Assembly: GCA_012034595.1 (NCBI GenBank)
Contig: JAAUPE010000057.1
Location: 1-40,033 of the forward strand
DNA: 40,033 nucleotides
Reading direction: 5' to 3'
Origin: Calothrix sp. CSU_2_0
GTDB lineage: Bacteria > Cyanobacteriota > Cyanobacteriia > Cyanobacteriales > Nostocaceae
In this document: positions 16,155 through 34,188 of the stretch, in pieces
How positions within the stretch are numbered: position 1 is the stretch's first letter
How the letters are laid out: every line of letters starts with the position of its first letter
Program-made: the position numbers and the translations under genes
The notes under the pieces: generated by a model
Databases searched by the model: none
What the model saw: the letters and a program-made list of their open reading frames with translations, nothing else
Told to the model about the DNA's origin: nothing

Positions 16155-17741
16155 TTAGGATTTAGCCAGAATTGCTTCTTGTTTGGGTAATACCAATACT
16201 TCTGACGGATCGTAGCCTAGCTGTTGAGTAATCCGTTCCCTGGCTAAAACACGATACTCCCAAAAATGTTCTCCAGCAGCGCACAAACCTAAATACATGT
16301 TGAGAACTTGAGGTTTATGTCGCAAAATTATCCATAGCTGTTGCCAAAACTGCCAGCGAATCTCCTGTCTGCGTAAACCCTGATGCCAAATAACCTGAGC
16401 AACAAGTCTCAATCCTTTACCCAAGGGAAATTGCATCGTTTGTTTTTGTCCTTTTTTGATTGAACCAATTTTCAGACATTGCTCAAAACTGCGTCTGAGA
16501 TAGTTTGCAGGTTCATACATCATCCACAACCCCTCAACGTACTCTTTAGCAATTTCAGCAATGGGACGGGTAGGTGCAAAATTCATTAGGGTATTCTGAT
16601 CTCCTGTGGGATGGTTGATGCTGTCGAATAAACGTTGTTCTACCTTGAGACGGTTCCATAAAGCTGTGTTGGGTAGAGCTTGGAGAATACCTAGCATGGG
16701 TTGAGGAATATTGGTTTGTTCTACAAAAGCTTGAATCCGTTCTCCAGCACCAGAGCGCTCTCCATCAAAGCCAAGAATGAACCCTGCATAGATAGACATA
16801 CCAGCTTTATTGATTTTGTCACAAGCTTCGACGAGGGGATGACGAGTATTTTGGTGTTTGCGTGTGACTTCTAGGCTATCTCGATCGGGGGTTTCAATAC
16901 CGAGAAACACAGCATAAAAACCTGCTTCATGCATTAGTTCGAGCAGTTCATCGTCTTCTGCCAAATTTACCGAAGCTTCTGTGATGAAGGTAAATGGATA
17001 GTTGTGCTGCTGCATCCAAGGAATCAATTCTCTAAGAAAGCGTTTGACATTACGTTGATTGCCAATAAAGTTGTCGTCTACGATGAAGAGTGAACCTCGC
17101 CAACCTAAATCATAGAGAGTTTGCAATTCTGCTAAACTTTGACTTGGTTCTTTGGTGCGTGGTTTGCGACCATAAAGCGAGATGATATCGCAAAATTCGC
17201 AGTTGAAAGGACAACCACGAGAAAATTGCATTGCCATCATCAAATAGGCATCGCGTTTAAGTAAATCAAACCGTGGTATGGGACTAAGGGTGACATCAGG
17301 TTTTTCAATGGAGCGAAAAATGCCTTGGGTTTGACCTTGATTGAGTGCTGCTAAAAACTGCGGAATTGTTAACTCTCCCTCATCCAAAATCAGATAATTG
17401 GCTCCAGAATCGAGTGCATCTTGTGGTACAGAGGTGGGGTAGGGACCACCAACCGCGACTTTTTTGCCTAAACGCACTGCTTTTTGAATTAAGGCATGAA
17501 AATCGGGCTTCTGCACCAGCATGGCGGAAAGAATTACTAAGTCGCACCACTCCCAATCAGCCTCAGTTTCTACGTTAACATTGCGATCGCAAAATCTAAT
17601 TTCCCAATCTTGCGGCAGGAGTGCTGCAACTGTAATGATTCCCAATGGAGGTATGACAGCTTTGAGTCCAGCGATTTTCATGAAGCGATCGTATGACCAA
17701 AAAGACTGAGGGAATTTTGGGTAGAGCAATAAAGCTTTCAT
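16155..17741 (-). CDS. B12-binding radical SAM enzyme, HpnP-like family
   Basis: This 528-residue class B radical SAM protein has an N-terminal cobalamin-binding Rossmann domain (residues about 1-135, with IPPLGIITVAALLP and VAVGGPYPTSVP). The radical SAM domain carries the cluster cysteines C177-x3-C181-x2-C184 (SRGCPFNCEFCD). A DUF4070-type C-terminal region begins around residue 350 (GILQALPNTALWNRL). This architecture is shared by methyltransferases such as hopanoid C-2 methylase HpnP and bacteriochlorophyll methylases. The N-terminus MKALLLYPKFPQSFWSYDR closely resembles HpnP-like cyanobacterial proteins, but many paralogues of unknown substrate exist, so HpnP itself is not asserted. No hopanoid genes are adjacent. 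Start chosen from the family N-terminus. Confidence 0.82.
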   Translation of the reverse strand: MKALLLYPKFPQSFWSYDRFMKIAGLKAVIPPLGIITVAALLPQDWEIRFCDRNVNVETEADWEWCDLVILSAMLVQKPDFHALIQKAVRLGKKVAVGGPYPTSVPQDALDSGANYLILDEGELTIPQFLAALNQGQTQGIFRSIEKPDVTLSPIPRFDLLKRDAYLMMAMQFSRGCPFNCEFCDIISLYGRKPRTKEPSQSLAELQTLYDLGWRGSLFIVDDNFIGNQRNVKRFLRELIPWMQQHNYPFTFITEASVNLAEDDELLELMHEAGFYAVFLGIETPDRDSLEVTRKHQNTRHPLVEACDKINKAGMSIYAGFILGFDGERSGAGERIQAFVEQTNIPQPMLGILQALPNTALWNRLKVEQRLFDSINHPTGDQNTLMNFAPTRPIAEIAKEYVEGLWMMYEPANYLRRSFEQCLKIGSIKKGQKQTMQFPLGKGLRLVAQVIWHQGLRRQEIRWQFWQQLWIILRHKPQVLNMYLGLCAAGEHFWEYRVLARERITQQLGYDPSEVLVLPKQEAILAKS

Positions 17742-26363: not shown

Positions 26364-28633
26364 ATGAGTATTAAACGTCGGGAATTTTTACTTTTAATTG
26401 GGGGAAGCGCCAGTGCTGCTGCACTCGGTTCGCTAGTTGGCTGTGAGAGGAAAGTGGCTGTGACACCCCAGGGTGTGACACCTGGAACTCAGTCTGCATT
26501 TACTTTTCAACCCATCAAAGGACCAATTCCTCTCTTAACGGATGGATTTAAGTCGGAGCAACAGCAACAAAATTACAATACCTATGAAGTAGTTGATGAT
26601 TTGGTATTGCCGTCCGGTTTTCAATATCAAGTTATTGCTAGCTGGGGGGATAAAGTCGGCGATTCCCGCTTCGGTTACAACAACGATTATTTGTCTTTTA
26701 TCCCTATTAGTGATACAGAAGGATATTTATCTGTAAATTTTGAATATATTAGTGCAATTCCCTGGATGCAAACCTATGAGCAGGTAATCGGTAAATCCCT
26801 ACCATTTAAAGAAATAATACAGGCATTGAAAAAGCAAGCATCGGGAAAAAATGAGATTAATGCTTTTGCTTTAGACGATGAAGACCCAATTAAAGCACAA
26901 ATTCGGCTTCTTTGTACGGAAGGACTTTTAGACCAGGGATTAGGTATTATTTCGGTTCGCAAAACTGCCGATGGGAAGTGGGAAAGAACAAATTCACCAG
27001 CCGATAGGCGGATTAGTGGTATTTCCGGATTGTCAGATGGCAAGTATCTCAAAGCTACAGGTCCGGCTGTGACAGTATTTCGCAAAAAACAGGCACAGGG
27101 TTACATCGATAAATTAGGCGATCGCATTATTGGTACTTTTGGTAATTGTGCCGGAGGAACAACACCTTGGGGCACTGTATTGAGTGCCGAGGAAAACTTC
27201 CAAGCTCAATTACCTGAACCAGTCTATGCTGATGGTACTTCTTTTGACCCCGGTAAGCGACCCTTTGCTTTGGATGATGAGGAATTTTACGGACAGGGTA
27301 ATGTATTAGGTTTAGCAGGAAATAAATACGGCTGGATTGTCGAAGTAGACCCCGCCAATCCCCAAGACTACGGCACAAAACACACATGGTTGGGACGTTA
27401 CCGCCATGAAGCTGTCGGCATACGGGTAGAAACAGGGAAACCATTAGCATTTTATTCCGGGTGCGATCGCCGAGGCGGACATATCTACAAATTTGTCAGC
27501 AGCAAAACCATAAGCAATCCCAAAGATAAAGCCAATTCCCAGCTTTTGCAGCAAGGAATGCTTTATGCCGCCAAATTTAACCCCGATGGTACAGGACGCT
27601 GGATACCCCTAAAATCAGATACACCAATTGACCCAGATATCCCCAGTAATATTGCTGGTAATTTAATTCGCCTCCCCAAAGGTCCTGTAACCCCAAGCCC
27701 AAAAATACCAAAATCACCGATAAAAAGCCCCTGAGAACACTTCCCGACCCCATCCCTGGCGGTAATTTAGAAGTTCGCAAAGATGAGGAAATCACTCAGT
27801 ATAAACAGAAATTTAAACAACTCAATGACCTGTACACAGGGAATGCTGAAGAAAAACAAGGCGCAATTCTCATAGATGCCCACTATGCTGCCAATGCCGC
27901 CGGAGCCACCTGTACAGCTCGTCCTGAAGACACCGAAGTTGCCCCCAATGGCGATTTGTATATCAGCTTTACCTCCGGTTCCCCCGACAAAGAAGGAGGA
28001 CCCGACCTGGGGGTATTTAAAGGTCCCAAAGGCGAAACCCCCTATGAATATGGTTGGGTAATGCGCCTCACCGAAGACAATAACGACCCTGCCGCTAAAA
28101 CCTTTCGCTGGCAAATGCTAGCCACAGGAGGCGAACCCGCAGCAGGTGGTTTTGGTTTTGCTAACCCAGATAATTTACTGCTGGATCGGAATGGAAATCT
28201 CTGGATGGTGACAGATATGTCTACATCGAAAATGAATAGCCCTGTAAAGAGTCGCACAGGTGATGATGGCAAGCCTGCAAGTATTTCTGGTGTATTTGGC
28301 AACAATTCTCTTTGGTATATCCCCACAAGCGGCGACAATGTTGGCAAAGCTTTTCTTTTTGGCATGGGACCGATGGAATGTGAAACCACGGGTCCTTGCT
28401 TCACACCAGACGAACAAACTATGTTTTTGGCGATACAGCATCCAGGAGAAGTAAACGGTATTCGTAAAAATCAAGCAACAGAAACTAGGGAATTTCTCGT
28501 CACCACCATCACGGGGGAAGAATTTACCCAAATCCGTCAAGTGCCTATCGGTTCCAACTGGCCCAGTAAAGACCCAAATGCACCACCCAAACCTTCAGTG
28601 GTTGTTGTGACTAAATCTCCAAAATCACGTTAA
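26364..28633 (+). pseudogene. phoX: PhoX-family (DUF839) phosphatase, split by a -1 frame change
   Basis: PhoX enzymes are exported calcium/iron alkaline phosphatases that release phosphate from organic esters. The first frame (26364-27734) has a Tat-type N-terminus with R5-R6 (IKRREFLLL) and a lipobox-like LVGC at C27, then the PhoX core with C262 (GNCAGGTTPWG) and E276/E277 (LSAEENFQ). Coding continues in the -1 frame up to 28633 (GNAEEKQGAILIDAHYAANA, GATCTARPEDTEVAPNGDLY, TGPCFTPDEQTMFLAIQHPG), clearly the rest of the same protein. The switch occurs between about 27660 and 27730. Total length, about 756 residues, is normal. A pseudogene, a sequencing error or programmed frameshifting are all possible; a C CCA AAA heptamer sits in frame at 27698-27704. 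Confidence 0.85.
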
Positions 28634-29145: not shown

Positions 29146-31485
29146 TTATGAATTACATGATGGTGTTGTAAAATTAGGACTGTGATTTGTTTGTTTTGGT
29201 GCTTTTCCTACTAAAAAAATCTCCCCATTTTTATTTATTACCCACCCCTGTGCTTCGATAATTGGAACTGTTGAAATAGTTGTTTTTTTAGCTTGATGAT
29301 TGTGAGTTTGTTCTGGGTAATTATCTAAGGATATCCAATCAGCATTGGCTGTATTATTCCTCAGAGAATCCCGTGGGTTAGCTGGTAATCCCCCACGTCC
29401 AGTAATGTTAAATTGGCTTTGATTACGCGCTATTTGTTCTTTGCATACTTGGGCTAATTTTGGCTCTGCGGGTTCTTGCGGGAGTTGAATTAATCCGCGA
29501 CTGGGGTCTACATTTAATGCATTAATATTTATAGTCCCATTTAGAGTGGGATTTGTTTGAGAAATTGCTGTGATATCACTGGTTGTAAATTTAGTTGGGT
29601 CTAATTGACTGGGGTCATTATTTCCTAAACTACGTGCTAAATCTTCTCTGCTAAGTTTTTCAATACCAACAATCCCAGCAGCTTTAATTGTTATTTTACC
29701 ACCGGAACCATTGTATGCGTTTGCCGTAATATCGTTATTCTCGAATTTATTGGCAACTATAAAACTATTAGGACTTTGGATGGTAATATTGCCCCCATCA
29801 CCATTAGATTGAACTTTACCTCCACTGGTGGAAATTTGACTATTGCGACGCATTAAAAGTAGGTTTTGTAGCTGTAAGCTGATATTTCCACCGTTCCCTA
29901 AGTCGGTTTGCGAGATGATTTTTCCTTGGTTTTCTAAGATTAGAGAACGAGCATTTATGATTAAATCCCCTGCTTTACCTAAATTTAGCCGATTTCCCAG
30001 ATATTTCACTTCTGGACGAATATTCACTTGACTGCTGACAGAAATTTCCGCACCATCACGAACACTTAAATTTTCCGTGTTTATGGTTAATTTTCCCGCA
30101 TCTCCCGAACCGAGAGTTTCCGCAACTATACTACTGGGTGAATTTGTATCTGATTTTCCAATTAATTCGATGGATGTGGCATTAATTGTCAAATTTCCGG
30201 CATTTCCTGTTGCTGGTAGTAATTCCTCTGGACTCACAAGGTTTCCGCTTGATTGTACTGTTATTGTTGCTCCATCTCGAATACTTAATTTACCCGTATT
30301 AATAGTGATATCACCAGCATTTCCAGATGCAAAAGTTCCATTTGCGATCGCGCTTAAAATTCCGGCAGTTTTTGATGTATCGCTAATACTGATTATCTCA
30401 ACAGATGTGGCAGCATTTATTGTTAACTTTCCCCCCATACCTGCACCAATTGTACTATTAACTATTTGTCCACCATCTCGGATGGTTAATTTATTCGCAT
30501 CAATTGCAATCTCACCACCATTGCTATTACCAGGATTTACGTTTATTAAACCGCTAGCTACTATTTCGATAACATTTCCCCGAACCCGAATATTTCCGCT
30601 ATTATCTTCACCTATTGTTGTCAAAATCGAGTTGAATCCAAATGTTTCGGAAATCGGAGCAATTTGTTGAATGTTCTGAAAATTACGGACTCTTTCATAT
30701 CCTAATGTCCAACCGTCGCTAACTGGAATCAAGCTAACTAAGCTTTCACTACCAACACTTCCTAACTCAATTCTTCCCTGGGGTGCTGTTAAATTTCCAC
30801 CATTTATTTTAATATCACCACCTATAAGCGCTAATGTTTTACCTGGATTAACCTGTAATCCCACTGGTGCATCAATCAAAAAGCTTTTTGCTCCATTAGG
30901 ACTTGCTTGCGATCTGTTTTCGATGCTGGCTACTGTAGTTCCAAATTGTAAGCCAATTGGAGTACTAATTGTTAGTAATGATTGGTTTGGAGTTTCTATA
31001 GTACTAAATTTGCTTTCATCGGCAAAGTTAAGGCTGTTTGCGGTACTAGCTATCAATGAACCACCAATATTTAAAGATGCGTTGTTACCAAAAATAATGC
31101 CGTTGGGATTGATGAGAAACAGGTTGGCAATCCCATTTGCACGAATTGTACCGTCAATATTGGAAATGGATTTCCCAGTGACGCGGGTAATTATATTTTG
31201 AATGCTGGAGGAGTTATTGAAATAGGCTGTATTTCCTGTTGGTATGGAGAATACGTCAAAACTATGAAATAGATTACTTCCTGCCGTGGTTCCTGCTTCA
31301 ATTAGTTGAATATTTTTCTGTGTGGTGACACGAGAATTGTTCGGTAAGGTATTATCTGGTGTTACTTGGGCTAAACTTCTGTTTGCAGAAAATATAAGTG
31401 TTGTCAATAAATCGATGAAAATAAGAATATTGATTAGAAAAATACTATTTTTGGATATTTTTAATTTATATTTAAAATTTATCAT
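29146..31485 (-). CDS. Two-partner secretion exoprotein (TpsA, filamentous haemagglutinin-like)
   Basis: This 779-residue secreted protein starts with a long signal region (hydrophobic 15-33, cleavage near SLAQ, residue 40) and a TPS secretion domain to about residue 290, with NPNGI at 126-130 (LFLINPNGIIFG), the family hallmark. The remainder is a right-handed beta-helix made of repeats of the type GNAGDITINTGKLSIRDGA and GDAGKLTINTENLSVRDGA. A C-terminal segment (IIEAQGWVINKNGEIFLVG) is common at the ends of cyanobacterial TpsA proteins. It would be exported by the divergent TpsB, and could act as adhesin or surface component. It is short compared with toxin-bearing TpsA; no toxin domain is seen. 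Confidence 0.88.
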   Translation of the reverse strand: MINFKYKLKISKNSIFLINILIFIDLLTTLIFSANRSLAQVTPDNTLPNNSRVTTQKNIQLIEAGTTAGSNLFHSFDVFSIPTGNTAYFNNSSSIQNIITRVTGKSISNIDGTIRANGIANLFLINPNGIIFGNNASLNIGGSLIASTANSLNFADESKFSTIETPNQSLLTISTPIGLQFGTTVASIENRSQASPNGAKSFLIDAPVGLQVNPGKTLALIGGDIKINGGNLTAPQGRIELGSVGSESLVSLIPVSDGWTLGYERVRNFQNIQQIAPISETFGFNSILTTIGEDNSGNIRVRGNVIEIVASGLINVNPGNSNGGEIAIDANKLTIRDGGQIVNSTIGAGMGGKLTINAATSVEIISISDTSKTAGILSAIANGTFASGNAGDITINTGKLSIRDGATITVQSSGNLVSPEELLPATGNAGNLTINATSIELIGKSDTNSPSSIVAETLGSGDAGKLTINTENLSVRDGAEISVSSQVNIRPEVKYLGNRLNLGKAGDLIINARSLILENQGKIISQTDLGNGGNISLQLQNLLLMRRNSQISTSGGKVQSNGDGGNITIQSPNSFIVANKFENNDITANAYNGSGGKITIKAAGIVGIEKLSREDLARSLGNNDPSQLDPTKFTTSDITAISQTNPTLNGTININALNVDPSRGLIQLPQEPAEPKLAQVCKEQIARNQSQFNITGRGGLPANPRDSLRNNTANADWISLDNYPEQTHNHQAKKTTISTVPIIEAQGWVINKNGEIFLVGKAPKQTNHSPNFTTPSCNS

Positions 31486-31565: not shown

Positions 31566-31600
31566 ACAGAAAAAACCGAGTTCCGCAAAGAAACCCGGTT
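31566..31600 (-). terminator. Intrinsic terminator after the cysteine-rich peptide gene
   Basis: On the minus strand AACCGGGTT (31600-31592) pairs with AACTCGGTT (31582-31574), eight of nine positions matched, followed by a run of six T. It lies about 95 bases after the stop of the peptide gene and before tpsA, so it ends the peptide transcript and separates it from tpsA. Confidence 0.75.
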
Positions 31601-31695: not shown

Positions 31696-32028
31696 CTAGC
31701 ATTGAACACAACAACGGCATATCCATGACCAGCAGCAAGATGCTAGCTTAATTTGCGTAGCCGGAATTGCTTTTAATGCACTCTGGACTTCAGTATCAGC
31801 AATGGCAGTATTATGCTGCGATCGCATTTGATGCAAATCAAAAAGAACTTCAAAGCTGATAGCTTCTTCTGTTAATCCATGCTTTTCAAAAATATCCTTC
31901 ATTTGGGAATTATTTATACATTTCATTAATTCCTCCTGGACTTCATATTGCATTTTCTGCAATGGGGTTGCATTCTCTGATAATTTTCCGTCGTTACCAT
32001 CGCATTGTGGTGTTTGTTCTACATTCAT
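31696..32028 (-). CDS. Cysteine-rich precursor-like peptide, candidate RiPP precursor
   Basis: No family is recognised. The 110-residue product is a soluble, acidic-to-neutral helical leader (QYEVQEELMKCINNSQMKDI, EKHGLTEEAISFEVLFDLHQ) ending abruptly in a tail from about residue 97, SCCWSWICRCCVQC, with C98, C99, C104, C106, C107 and C110 plus W100 and W102. A long conserved-looking leader with a short Cys/Trp-rich C-terminus is the hallmark of ribosomal peptide precursors. A good Shine-Dalgarno (AAGGA, 6 bases from ATG) and a terminator make it a genuine single-gene unit. No lanthipeptide synthetase, YcaO, radical SAM or ABC exporter lies within reach. Alternatives are a metal-binding or disulfide-linked secreted peptide, or a membrane-active tail. 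It sits between tpsA and tpsB. Confidence 0.6.
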   Translation of the reverse strand: MNVEQTPQCDGNDGKLSENATPLQKMQYEVQEELMKCINNSQMKDIFEKHGLTEEAISFEVLFDLHQMRSQHNTAIADTEVQSALKAIPATQIKLASCCWSWICRCCVQC

Positions 32029-32385
32029 GATTCCTTGACCTCATTAGTTATGTACTATTAACTAGTTTGTTTGGTAAAGCTTTAGGCTTTATTTCTAGTT
32101 ATGGATTTAGATACAAACCCCCAACAAATCATTCCTGAATTTCTGACCACATTGCTCAAAGCCTTGCAAACCCAGATTACTGCGTTATCTAAAAATCTTT
32201 ATATTGATGTTTATTTAACTGAAATTCTGCTACATTAGCTTTTATTTCGGCTTTTATTTGGCTATAAGGCAATATTCCCCTAGAATTATTAAAGTAGCGC
32301 TAAGAACATAGACCCGTATTTATGCTAAAAAATACTACAAGGTTCATGTTTTTACCTCTGCTTTAATTAAGGAAAGTTTTATGCC
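32029..32385. other. Divergent spacer between the peptide gene and tpsB
   Basis: The 357 bases hold the promoters of the peptide gene (minus) and tpsB (plus) and a 45-codon frame described separately. A good ribosome binding site, AAGGAAAG at 32369-32376, precedes the tpsB start. Confidence 0.45.
32101..32238 (+). CDS. Possible 45-residue ORF upstream of tpsB
   Basis: ATG at 32101 opens 45 codons to TAG at 32236-32238. The product MDLDTNPQQIIPEFLTTLLK... is helical and of normal composition, with no signal peptide or recognised motif. There is no convincing ribosome binding site. It is divergent from the cysteine-rich peptide gene. It may be a small leader ORF of the tpsB transcript or chance. 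Confidence 0.25.
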   Translation: MDLDTNPQQIIPEFLTTLLKALQTQITALSKNLYIDVYLTEILLH

Positions 32386-34188
32386 ATGTCTCAAAAATAT
32401 CGTCTTAGCAGTTGGTTGTATAAATTTAACCTGTGTTGTAACTCACTCATTCTCATATCATTAACCCAAGCCATATCAGTTAGCGCTGAGGAGATAAATG
32501 TTATAGAATCTGGGAAATTATTCAACCAAGCACAAACCCCTGCAAATCCGACTCCGAGACGGGAGACAAAACCACCTTCCACCCAACCTTTACCAGAACA
32601 AGCTCCTCCTGCTCCGTTACCACCACCTGAACAACTTTTGACTCCTCCAGTTCCAAATACTTTACCGAGCAATCTGGAGGAAGAACAATCGGATGATATT
32701 CCCCAAGCGATCGCAATTAAGAAAATTAAAATAACTGGCAGTACAATCTTTAGTGAGAAAGACTTTGCCAAGATTACAGAACGCTATACAAAGAAACCAG
32801 TAAGTTTAGCGGAATTGTTTCAGTTACGTTCCGAAATTACCAAGTTTTATGTTGACAAAGGATACATTACAACTGGGGCATTTATTCCCCCACAGAAGTT
32901 AATTGATGGGGTTGTGGAAGTTAGGATAATTGAGGGGGAACTTGAAGAAATTAAGGTGAGTGGTACAGGTAGGTTGAATCCTAATTATGTACGCAGTCGC
33001 TTGGCATTAGCGACAAGGAAACCGTTAAATCGGGAGAAATTGCTCGAAGCTTTGCAAGTACTGCAATTGAATCCATTAATTAAAAATTTGTCTGCAGAAT
33101 TAGCTGCAGGAATTCGTCCGGGTTCGAGTACCCTGGAAGTGACCATACAGGAAGCAAAAACATTTAACGCACAAATAACTTTAGATAATAGTCGTTCCCC
33201 TAGTGTGGGCAGTTTTCGCAGACAAGTTCAACTGAGTGAGTCAAATTTGTTGGGGTTGGGGGATAGTATCAGTGCTGCTTATACGAATACTGATGGTAGT
33301 AATTCCTATGATTTTAACTATACAGTCCCGATTAATCCCCGTAATGGCACCTTTGCATTCAGTTATGGAACATCTGACAATAATGTGATCGAGCAACCGT
33401 TTAACAGACTCGATATCGAATCCAACTCGAATTATTATGAATTTACACTGCGACAACCCGTAATTCAAAAGCCTAATCGAGAACTCGCATTTGGAGTTGC
33501 ATTAACTAATCGTGAAAGCCAAGCTAGCTTGTTAAATGGGGAAGTTCCCTTTCCTGGTGAAGGTGTAGACAAAAATGGTAGAACTAGTGTCACCGCACTA
33601 CGGCTTTTTCAAGAATGGACACAACGCAGCAGCAAACAAGTTTTTGCAGTGCGATCGCAATTTAGTATTGGGCTTGATGCATTTAATTCTACAATCAATA
33701 ATAAGTCTCCTGATAGTAGCTTCTATGCATGGCGAGGACAAGCGCAATGGGTACGTTTACTTGCTCCGGATACTTTACTCTTGATACGGGGTGATTTACA
33801 ATTTGCTGATAGACCGCTTGTTGCTCTCGAACAATTTGGATTAGGTGGGCAAAGTAGTGTGCGTGGATATCGTCAAGATGCATTACTCACTGATAATGGT
33901 TTTTTTGTGAGTAGCGAAGTTCGATTACCACTTTTACGCGATAAGCGATCGCAGACTTTATTACAGATTGTCCCTTTTATCGATGTGGGTACGGTATGGA
34001 ATCGTAGTAATAGAGCTAATTTGGAAACTAATACTCTATTGTCTACTGGTTTGGGTTTACGTCTGCAATTAAGCGATAAGTTAAATGCACAATTTGATTG
34101 GGGAATCCCTTTAATCTCTTTTGATTCGAGGAAAAGTACGTGGCAAGAAAATGGTCTGTATTTTTCTGTTGTTTATACTCCTTTTTAG
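32386..34188 (+). CDS. Two-partner secretion outer-membrane transporter (TpsB, ShlB/FhaC family)
   Basis: In this 600-residue protein a signal peptide (residues about 14-35, CNSLILISLTQAISVSAEE) precedes a proline-rich linker (50-90). Two POTRA domains follow (from about 105, AIAIKKIKITGSTIFSEKDF, then LEEIKVSGTGRLNPNYVRSR), and a 16-strand barrel starts near residue 260. The loop-6 motif VRGY is at 492-495 (GQSSVRGYRQD), followed by IVPFIDVGTVWN, and the last strand ends in F as required for BamA-dependent insertion. It exports the TpsA protein across the outer membrane. The start is supported by AAGGAAAG nine bases upstream. It is divergent from tpsA, which is unusual since most tps pairs are co-directional. 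Confidence 0.93.
   Translation: MSQKYRLSSWLYKFNLCCNSLILISLTQAISVSAEEINVIESGKLFNQAQTPANPTPRRETKPPSTQPLPEQAPPAPLPPPEQLLTPPVPNTLPSNLEEEQSDDIPQAIAIKKIKITGSTIFSEKDFAKITERYTKKPVSLAELFQLRSEITKFYVDKGYITTGAFIPPQKLIDGVVEVRIIEGELEEIKVSGTGRLNPNYVRSRLALATRKPLNREKLLEALQVLQLNPLIKNLSAELAAGIRPGSSTLEVTIQEAKTFNAQITLDNSRSPSVGSFRRQVQLSESNLLGLGDSISAAYTNTDGSNSYDFNYTVPINPRNGTFAFSYGTSDNNVIEQPFNRLDIESNSNYYEFTLRQPVIQKPNRELAFGVALTNRESQASLLNGEVPFPGEGVDKNGRTSVTALRLFQEWTQRSSKQVFAVRSQFSIGLDAFNSTINNKSPDSSFYAWRGQAQWVRLLAPDTLLLIRGDLQFADRPLVALEQFGLGGQSSVRGYRQDALLTDNGFFVSSEVRLPLLRDKRSQTLLQIVPFIDVGTVWNRSNRANLETNTLLSTGLGLRLQLSDKLNAQFDWGIPLISFDSRKSTWQENGLYFSVVYTPF

What the first reader, a model, noticed from the sequence alone, without database searches (positions are those of the whole stretch)
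31696..32028. Cysteine- and tryptophan-rich precursor-like peptide inside a two-partner secretion locus
Seen: a 110-codon gene with its own ribosome binding site and terminator, a helical leader and a C-terminus SCCWSWICRCCVQC (six Cys, two Trp in 14 residues), placed between tpsA and tpsB. Known: RiPP precursors combine a leader with a short modifiable core. Inferred: this is a precursor or secreted peptide without an adjacent modification enzyme, so either acted on in trans, or a metal- or disulfide-bearing peptide. I recognise no leader family (not Nif11, not nitrile-hydratase type by eye). A 7-base inverted repeat (CTAGCAT 31696-31702 / ATGCTAG 31740-31746) brackets the core codons.
Basis: partly seen in the sequence, partly recalled or inferred. 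Interest (0 to 1): 0.8.

Follow-up and report, generated by a model that had tools for sequence, protein, structure and literature searches.

The report
Variable cysteine-tailed peptides paired with adhesins
A small gene that ends in a burst of cysteines belongs to an unnamed family of heterocyst-forming cyanobacteria that nearly always sits just upstream of one kind of two-partner-secreted surface protein; its tail varies, keeps its cysteines, and has repeatedly been fused to export signals, so it probably works outside the cell membrane.

Summary
The ORF is real: 31696-32028 (-), 110 aa, six Cys and two Trp in the last 14 residues. It belongs to a family without a Pfam or NCBIfam name, found in 108 of 217 genomes of its bacterial family. 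The two-partner-secretion setting is not incidental: 106 of 114 evaluable copies are followed, same strand, by a TpsA, and those TpsA group together in trees. Ordinary copies lack a signal peptide, but 26 hand-picked copies in eight genera have one (20 with a TpsA-like N-terminus, four twin-arginine), seven of them in tandem in L116. Where the leader has decayed, a Cys-tailed ORF still precedes this kind of TpsA: 18 of 19, against 6 of 58 other TpsA. So the tail looks like the selected part. The leader is neither NHLP nor Nif11, no RiPP enzyme is common to the loci, and the 7-base inverted repeat is chance. Best reading, inferred: a third component of a TPS system whose disulfide-type tail acts outside the cytoplasm together with TpsA. 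A RiPP modified in trans is not excluded. Function, disulfides and export of ordinary copies are unproven.

The parts
31696..32028 (-). Cys-tailed small protein (family member, no signal peptide), 110 aa
   Evidence: family HMM E 4e-31
31699..31740 (-). variable Cys-rich tail SCCWSWICRCCVQC
   Evidence: family-level variation
31741..32028 (-). leader/front part (LQKMQYEVQEELMKC..FEKHGL..)
32032..32042 (-). ribosome-binding-like GAGG and AAGGA before the ATG
   Evidence: read
31574..31600 (-). terminator-like hairpin between the small gene and tpsA
29146..31485 (-). tpsA partner, 779 aa, TPS domain, Cys near the C-terminus
32386..34188 (+). tpsB-type transporter, divergent; in the maps its cluster occurs only in the three loci of this genus (L033, L034, window)

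Best explanation
It is a third component of a two-partner secretion system in heterocyst-forming cyanobacteria: a short precursor-like protein whose front part is a targeting or carrier segment and whose C-terminal Cys loop(s) are the working part. Shown: the family exists, is under selection as protein, is tied to one group of TpsA, keeps its Cys while the rest of the tail varies, and has repeatedly acquired Sec- or Tat-like signals. Inferred: the tail forms disulfide-closed loops outside the cytoplasm and acts together with the co-encoded TpsA on the cell surface, with its variability reflecting recognition of, or antagonism towards, a changing partner (rival cells, phage, host). How copies without a signal peptide, including the one in the window, would leave the cytoplasm is not known; they may instead be cytoplasmic counterparts or be exported by an unidentified route.
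For: Linkage: 106 of 114 evaluable copies (117 less 3 at contig ends) have tpsA as next ORF of 150+ aa on the same strand, other copies skipped. Specificity: 8 of 71 sampled TPS loci in 10 genomes carry it (searches list about 196 places in those genomes); in the window's genome 1 of 13 TPS places. Tree: 57 linked TpsA fall in one clade (99/98) with one of 63 unlinked rows inside, L188; that genome keeps its family copy elsewhere, L140. Tail before leader: 18 of 19 upstream Cys-tailed ORFs against 6 of 58. Export: 26 ORFs with signal peptides, 20 scoring 102-175 against TpsA N-termini where 40 ordinary copies reach at most 46. Selection: tail dN/dS 0.34, 0.57 outside shared Cys columns. Composition: Cys 18.7% in the last 22 residues, 1.0% elsewhere, modal count 4, over 143 unique copies.
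Against: Most copies have no signal peptide: 116 of 119 ordinary copies stay under the hydrophobicity mark that 133 of 135 TpsA N-termini pass. Nostoc first-copy tails (PCPSTGSPLGCNC type) are conserved, not variable. The signal-peptide copies were found by their in-frame tail, so out-of-frame remnants would be missed and some fusions may be by-products of tandem-unit recombination; two of the 26 (L147, L315) show no AxA site, and L062 and L148 come from a genome listed with 38% contamination. Disulfides were not shown; three of 143 tails have one Cys in the last 22 residues. TpsA C-terminal Cys are general in this TpsA group (88 of 88 linked, 19 of 20 others, one of which, L232, is the L188 gene), so they do not single out this partner. 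In the second tree three more unlinked rows join the group.
Confidence: 0.5

Rival explanations
1. RiPP precursor modified by enzymes encoded elsewhere: leader binds a maturase, the Cys/Trp-rich core is crosslinked and exported.
For: Constant front, variable Cys-rich core; Gly and Pro also enriched in the tail. B12 radical-SAM genes lie near some loci (cluster 13: 10 loci of three genera; cluster 12: 3 loci of three genera), one also 14 kb away in the window at 16155-17741; an ABC transporter with membrane and ATPase parts recurs in 5 loci of four genera (cluster 10).
Against: None of these is common to the loci; the cluster-13 enzyme sits beside a squalene/phytoene-synthase gene. Not NHLP or Nif11; no match to either in the window genome. 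No GG site in the consensus. Several signal-peptide copies lack much of the leader.
Confidence: 0.2
2. Cytoplasmic metal or thiol sensor/chaperone for tpsA expression or TpsA export; the Cys tail binds a metal.
For: No signal peptide in ordinary copies; nearly always upstream of tpsA; CxxC..CC spacings.
Against: Cys number in the last 22 residues ranges from 1 to 8 and tail lengths differ, which is odd for a sensor; versions with export signals exist.
Confidence: 0.14
3. Transcription-attenuation leader: translation of the Cys/Trp codons controls read-through into tpsA.
For: Terminator-like hairpins in 24 of 85 gaps of 60+ nt against 2 in shuffled gaps, window included.
Against: No hairpin found in 61 of 85 gaps; selection acts on the protein; fusions to signal peptides; tails with two spaced Cys and no Cys run.
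Confidence: 0.05
4. Decaying by-products of tandem duplication of small gene-tpsA units, without own function.
For: Tandem units in Nostoc; TpsA fragments fused to tails; some leaders are unrecognisable.
Against: dN/dS well under 1; presence in 108 of 217 genomes; tail kept where the leader is lost.
Confidence: 0.08

Closest known systems
BcpO of Burkholderia bcpAIOB (CDI-type TPS), PMC3415462 (passages read)
   Same: Small protein encoded in a TPS locus; some versions have an export (lipoprotein) signal, others none and are variable; not similar to characterised proteins.
   Different: BcpO lies before tpsB, its versions are given as 73-74 aa or 57-172 aa, and it serves a CDI system with a polymorphic toxin end; here the gene lies before tpsA, the variable part is a Cys-rich tail, and the TpsA are mostly 750-850 aa (88 of 90). 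Homology was not tested.
HMW1C glycosyltransferase, third partner of HMW1/HMW2 (PMC13192263, one passage read; PMC3983070, search listing with start of text only)
   Same: A third gene tied to a TPS pair.
   Different: An enzyme, not a short Cys-tailed protein.
HMW1/HxuA C-terminal Cys tether (PMC5422565 and PMC13192263, passages)
   Same: A disulfide at the C-terminus in the TPS setting; the cyanobacterial TpsA here also have a C-terminal Cys.
   Different: There the Cys belong to TpsA itself.
NHLP (TIGR03793) and Nif11 (TIGR03798) leader precursors of cyanobacteria
   Same: Short genes with constant leader and variable, often Cys-bearing core (recalled).
   Different: No profile similarity (probability 0.2% against 90.6% between NHLP and Nif11), no GG site, tie to tpsA.
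Conotoxin/defensin-like precursors of eukaryotes (recalled)
   Same: Constant signal/pro part, fast tail with kept Cys.
   Different: Analogy only; no homology tested.

Membership tests
RiPP precursor | Leader plus variable core | tested here: met
   Leader 53% vs tail 27% identity in the 50-60% bin (66 pairs, PCP..GCNC tails excluded); PCP..GCNC tails themselves are conserved
RiPP precursor | Modification enzyme in the neighbourhood of most members | tested here: not met
   One representative of each of the 40 most widespread neighbour clusters in 81 loci was run on Pfam (with cluster match); only B12 radical-SAM types, three genera each, are candidates; rarer neighbours were not annotated
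RiPP precursor | Known leader family (NHLP, Nif11) | tested here: not met
   hhalign probability 0.2% to each; at E up to 1 no NCBIfam family matches more than 6 of 43 members and no Pfam family more than 2
RiPP precursor | Modified mature product | not testable with these tools
   needs mass spectrometry
Two-partner secretion locus | TpsA with TPS domain | tested here: met
   PF05860 E 8e-62
Two-partner secretion locus | TpsB with POTRA and FhaC/ShlB barrel | tested here: met
   PF08479 and PF03865 in 32386-34188
TPS third component (BcpO-like role) | Small ORF consistently paired with tpsA | tested here: met
   106 of 114; control 18 of 19 vs 6 of 58
TPS third component (BcpO-like role) | Needed for TpsA function | not testable with these tools
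   needs deletion mutant
Exported disulfide-rich peptide | Signal peptide | tested here: inconclusive
   present in 26 hand-picked copies of eight genera, absent in 116 of 119 ordinary copies by a hydrophobicity rule; the window copy has none by eye
Exported disulfide-rich peptide | Disulfide bonds formed | not testable with these tools
   structure prediction off

The most novel reading that the evidence does not exclude
A family not described in any source searched here (Pfam, NCBIfam, open-licence PMC) of fast-diversifying, disulfide-looped peptides that travels with one TPS adhesin lineage of heterocyst-forming cyanobacteria and serves as its variable recognition or weapon module: a bacterial counterpart of constant-precursor, variable-Cys-tail gene families, with tails moved between a leader-bearing and a Sec/Tat-exported form by recombination with tpsA.
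Probability: 0.3. Interest if true: 0.86.

Novelty: new variant of a known kind. Interest (0 to 1): 0.7.

Why it matters
TPS systems are usually described as two proteins, with occasional third partners such as HMW1C or BcpO. A Cys-tailed partner tied to one TpsA group, detected in 108 of 217 genomes of a large cyanobacterial family, with tandem copies and captured signal peptides, would add a new component and give a testable route to what the many cyanobacterial TpsA proteins do. It also warns that the mark 'leader plus Cys-rich core' is not by itself evidence of a RiPP.

Tried and rejected
Rejected: the 7-base inverted repeat as a signal; NHLP and Nif11 membership; an Rfam RNA element (none at gathering score); a known relative in Pfam, NCBIfam, PHROGs, PADLOC or PDB (scattered weak matches only, the strongest being DndG, 3 of 43 members, best E 2e-4, and Pfam UBM, 1 of 43, E 4e-4); plasmid carriage (no match for the window protein alone); TpsA C-terminal Cys as a special feature of the partner. 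The A6 search cannot prove or disprove strict co-occurrence, because at most four candidates per genome were scored. Three genomes without a family match but with a strong TpsA match (G063, G155, G160) were not followed up, as their places were not listed, and at least four further listed TpsA places without a known partner (G059:C16, G060:C7:273399, G110:C450, G133:C34) were not fetched. The tail grouping used loose patterns and is not relied on. In one search the NHLP set was 20 rows from 21 of 30 loci, and one Nif11 row (L279) was empty. Literature: searches, judged from titles and abstract starts, listed nothing on such a peptide beside cyanobacterial tpsA; only open-licence PMC papers are held. 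PMC4793230 was opened for passages and not used. A 'filamentous hemagglutinin N-terminal domain' protein among Nostoc phage-resistance mutants (PMC10811720, passages of a table) is a lead only.

Full report
What is in the window. The ORF at 31696-32028 (-) encodes MNVEQTPQ...LASCCWSWICRCCVQC, 110 aa. It has a Shine-Dalgarno-like stretch before the ATG and an 11-pair terminator-like hairpin after it at 31600-31574. It lies 210 nt upstream of, and in the same direction as, a 779-aa TpsA with a TPS domain; a divergent TpsB lies on the other side. The 7-base inverted repeat is expected by chance. ARAGORN finds no tRNA and Rfam nothing at gathering score.

A family without a name. Pfam and NCBIfam give no member-wide match. 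With the single protein, 141 of 217 genomes of the same bacterial family match at the loose limit E 1; with a 43-row profile, 108 of 217 match at E 0.001, in 23 of 56 genera. In a class-wide draw of 388 genomes 7 match, all 7 in that family; at most 12 candidates per genome were scored there. One search gave 30 named loci, mostly Nostoc and Desmonostoc; that the family is heterocyst-forming is general knowledge about these names. The window's own genome has one copy; two further hits at E 0.14 and 3.4 lie in longer, unrelated-looking frames and were not followed up.

Tied to one kind of TpsA. In the window and 80 fetched loci there are 117 copies from 23 genera. Skipping other copies and ORFs under 150 aa, the next gene is tpsA on the same strand in 106, something else in 8, and the contig ends in 3. 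The exceptions include an IS605-type transposase insertion (L041), a short ORF or displaced or shortened tpsA (L119, L121, L126), and L140, where a histidine kinase follows. The partner TpsA measure 750-850 aa in 88 of 90. Across 90 tpsA genes with a copy upstream the gap has median 282 nt. Most other TpsA lack it: 8 of 71 sampled TPS loci in ten genomes carry it within the 1.5 kb held on each side (searches list about 196 places in those genomes). In the window's genome it is 1 of 13 TPS places. In a tree of TPS domains, 57 linked rows (at most six per genus, from 89) form one clade with support 99/98 that holds one of 63 unlinked rows, L188 of G209; the bootstrap had not fully settled. G209 still has the small gene, at L140, so there the pair appears to have been separated.

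The tail outlasts the leader. From the rows listed, 20 high-scoring TpsA without a known partner were hand-picked and fetched. The family HMM finds a copy upstream in 9 of 20. Reading the upstream ORFs adds eight more with a Cys tail such as CFVNGKWVAC, CWIDEDGNRVCLP or CVETPQGRICD but little or no leader similarity; three of 20 (L309, L322, L323) show none by eye. A homology-free criterion (ORF of 60+ aa ending within 1,100 nt upstream, at least two Cys in the last 22 residues, the last Cys within eight of the end) is met by 18 of 19 of these (one lacked upstream sequence), by 84 of 89 originally linked TpsA and by 6 of 58 unlinked TpsA; Fisher p 1.4e-11 for 18/19 against 6/58, which ignores relatedness. 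The counts 17 by eye and 18 by rule differ because about one in ten passes by chance. With at least four Cys the figures are 3 of 19, 64 of 89 and 1 of 58: the partners first missed have mostly two-Cys tails. All 20 fall with the linked TpsA in a second tree (group support 95/96), which also takes in four of 36 unlinked rows, L188 and three others.

Variation and selection. Over 143 unique copies Cys make up 18.7% of the last 22 residues and 1.0% of the rest; 69 copies have four Cys there. At 50-60% leader identity, tails other than PCP..GCNC agree in 27% of positions outside shared Cys (66 pairs); with PCP..GCNC tails included the bin shows 60% (287 pairs), since Nostoc first copies keep that tail. 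Pairs are not independent. In 34 close pairs dN/dS is 0.31 (leader), 0.34 (tail) and 0.57 (tail without shared Cys columns): a real protein, Cys held, the rest of the tail looser; none of these three pooled values is above 1.

Signal-peptide copies. 26 hand-picked ORFs from eight genera carry a signal peptide in front of the tail. Twenty have an N-terminus like that of TpsA (scores 102-175; 40 ordinary copies tested reach at most 46), four have an RRxF twin-arginine motif, two another hydrophobic start; 24 of 26 show an AxA site. Examples are L073:12997-13503 (same ORF as L052:11120-11626), L098:13327-13659, L118:7532-8077 and L148:6286-6729. L116 holds seven in a row before an ordinary copy and tpsA; the first 110 residues agree in 72% on average, the last 30 in 40% (21 pairs). 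Several share the Cys framework with the ordinary copy beside them, e.g. L118 and L101, where the tail CVPCPSNHNPLGCNC occurs in both. Of 119 ordinary copies 116 stay below the hydrophobicity mark. The fusions were found through their in-frame tail, so the number of broken ones is unknown.

Not a known leader family, no common enzyme. Profile comparison with NHLP and Nif11 leaders from sister genomes gives 0.2% probability, while the two control families find each other at 90.6%. The window genome has no match to either leader at E 0.001. Representatives of the 40 most widespread neighbour clusters were run on Pfam (clusters tied). They are housekeeping or general genes (SDR, accA, aldehyde decarbonylase, GTP cyclohydrolase, S4, MoaA, histidine kinases, glycosyltransferases, WD40/TPR, CHAT-TPR, DUF928, DUF1822); a few have no Pfam match. 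The candidates for a RiPP reading are two B12 radical-SAM clusters (10 loci and 3 loci, three genera each), the larger beside a squalene/phytoene-synthase gene, and an ABC transporter in 5 loci of four genera; none is common to the loci. The window itself has a B12 radical-SAM gene 14 kb away. Rarer neighbours were not annotated.

Mechanism. Shown: pairing with TpsA, coding selection, kept Cys, captured export-type signals. Inferred: disulfide-closed loops, action outside the cytoplasm, joint function with TpsA, and a recognition or antagonism role to explain the variation. The closest functional precedent is BcpO, a small TPS-locus protein reported as needed for BcpA function and present in versions with and without an export signal (PMC3415462, passages); homology was not tested. 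Attenuation is possible in some loci (24 of 85 gaps with a terminator-like hairpin, 2 in shuffled gaps), but does not explain the protein-level evidence.

Limits. No structure could be predicted.

Noticed in passing
window 26364-27734 and 27956-28633 (+): Two adjacent ORFs match the front and back of PhoX alkaline phosphatase: a gene split in two.
   Followed up: partly
L116:6218-13019: Seven tandem signal-peptide copies with similar fronts and different Cys tails, then an ordinary copy and tpsA.
   Followed up: partly
G012:C1:6976374-7006801; G186:C1:2856480-2869999: Tandem arrays of tpsA genes roughly 2.5-3 kb apart; none of those sampled as loci showed the small gene.
   Followed up: no
G085:C1:2154667-2156646: Four nearly equal-scoring NHLP-leader genes spaced exactly 577 bp apart, which looks like a recent tandem amplification of RiPP precursors.
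   Followed up: no
L070:13652-14683 and relatives in 26 loci of seven genera: A 343-aa protein without any Pfam match at E 0.001 recurs near the loci.
   Followed up: no
L041:8108-9286: An IS605-type OrfB transposase gene lies between the small gene and tpsA.
   Followed up: no
L062, L131, L148: In one genus (g33) the small protein carries a twin-arginine (Tat-like) signal instead of a TpsA-like Sec signal.
   Followed up: partly
window 16155-17741 (-): B12-binding radical-SAM protein with DUF4070.
   Followed up: no
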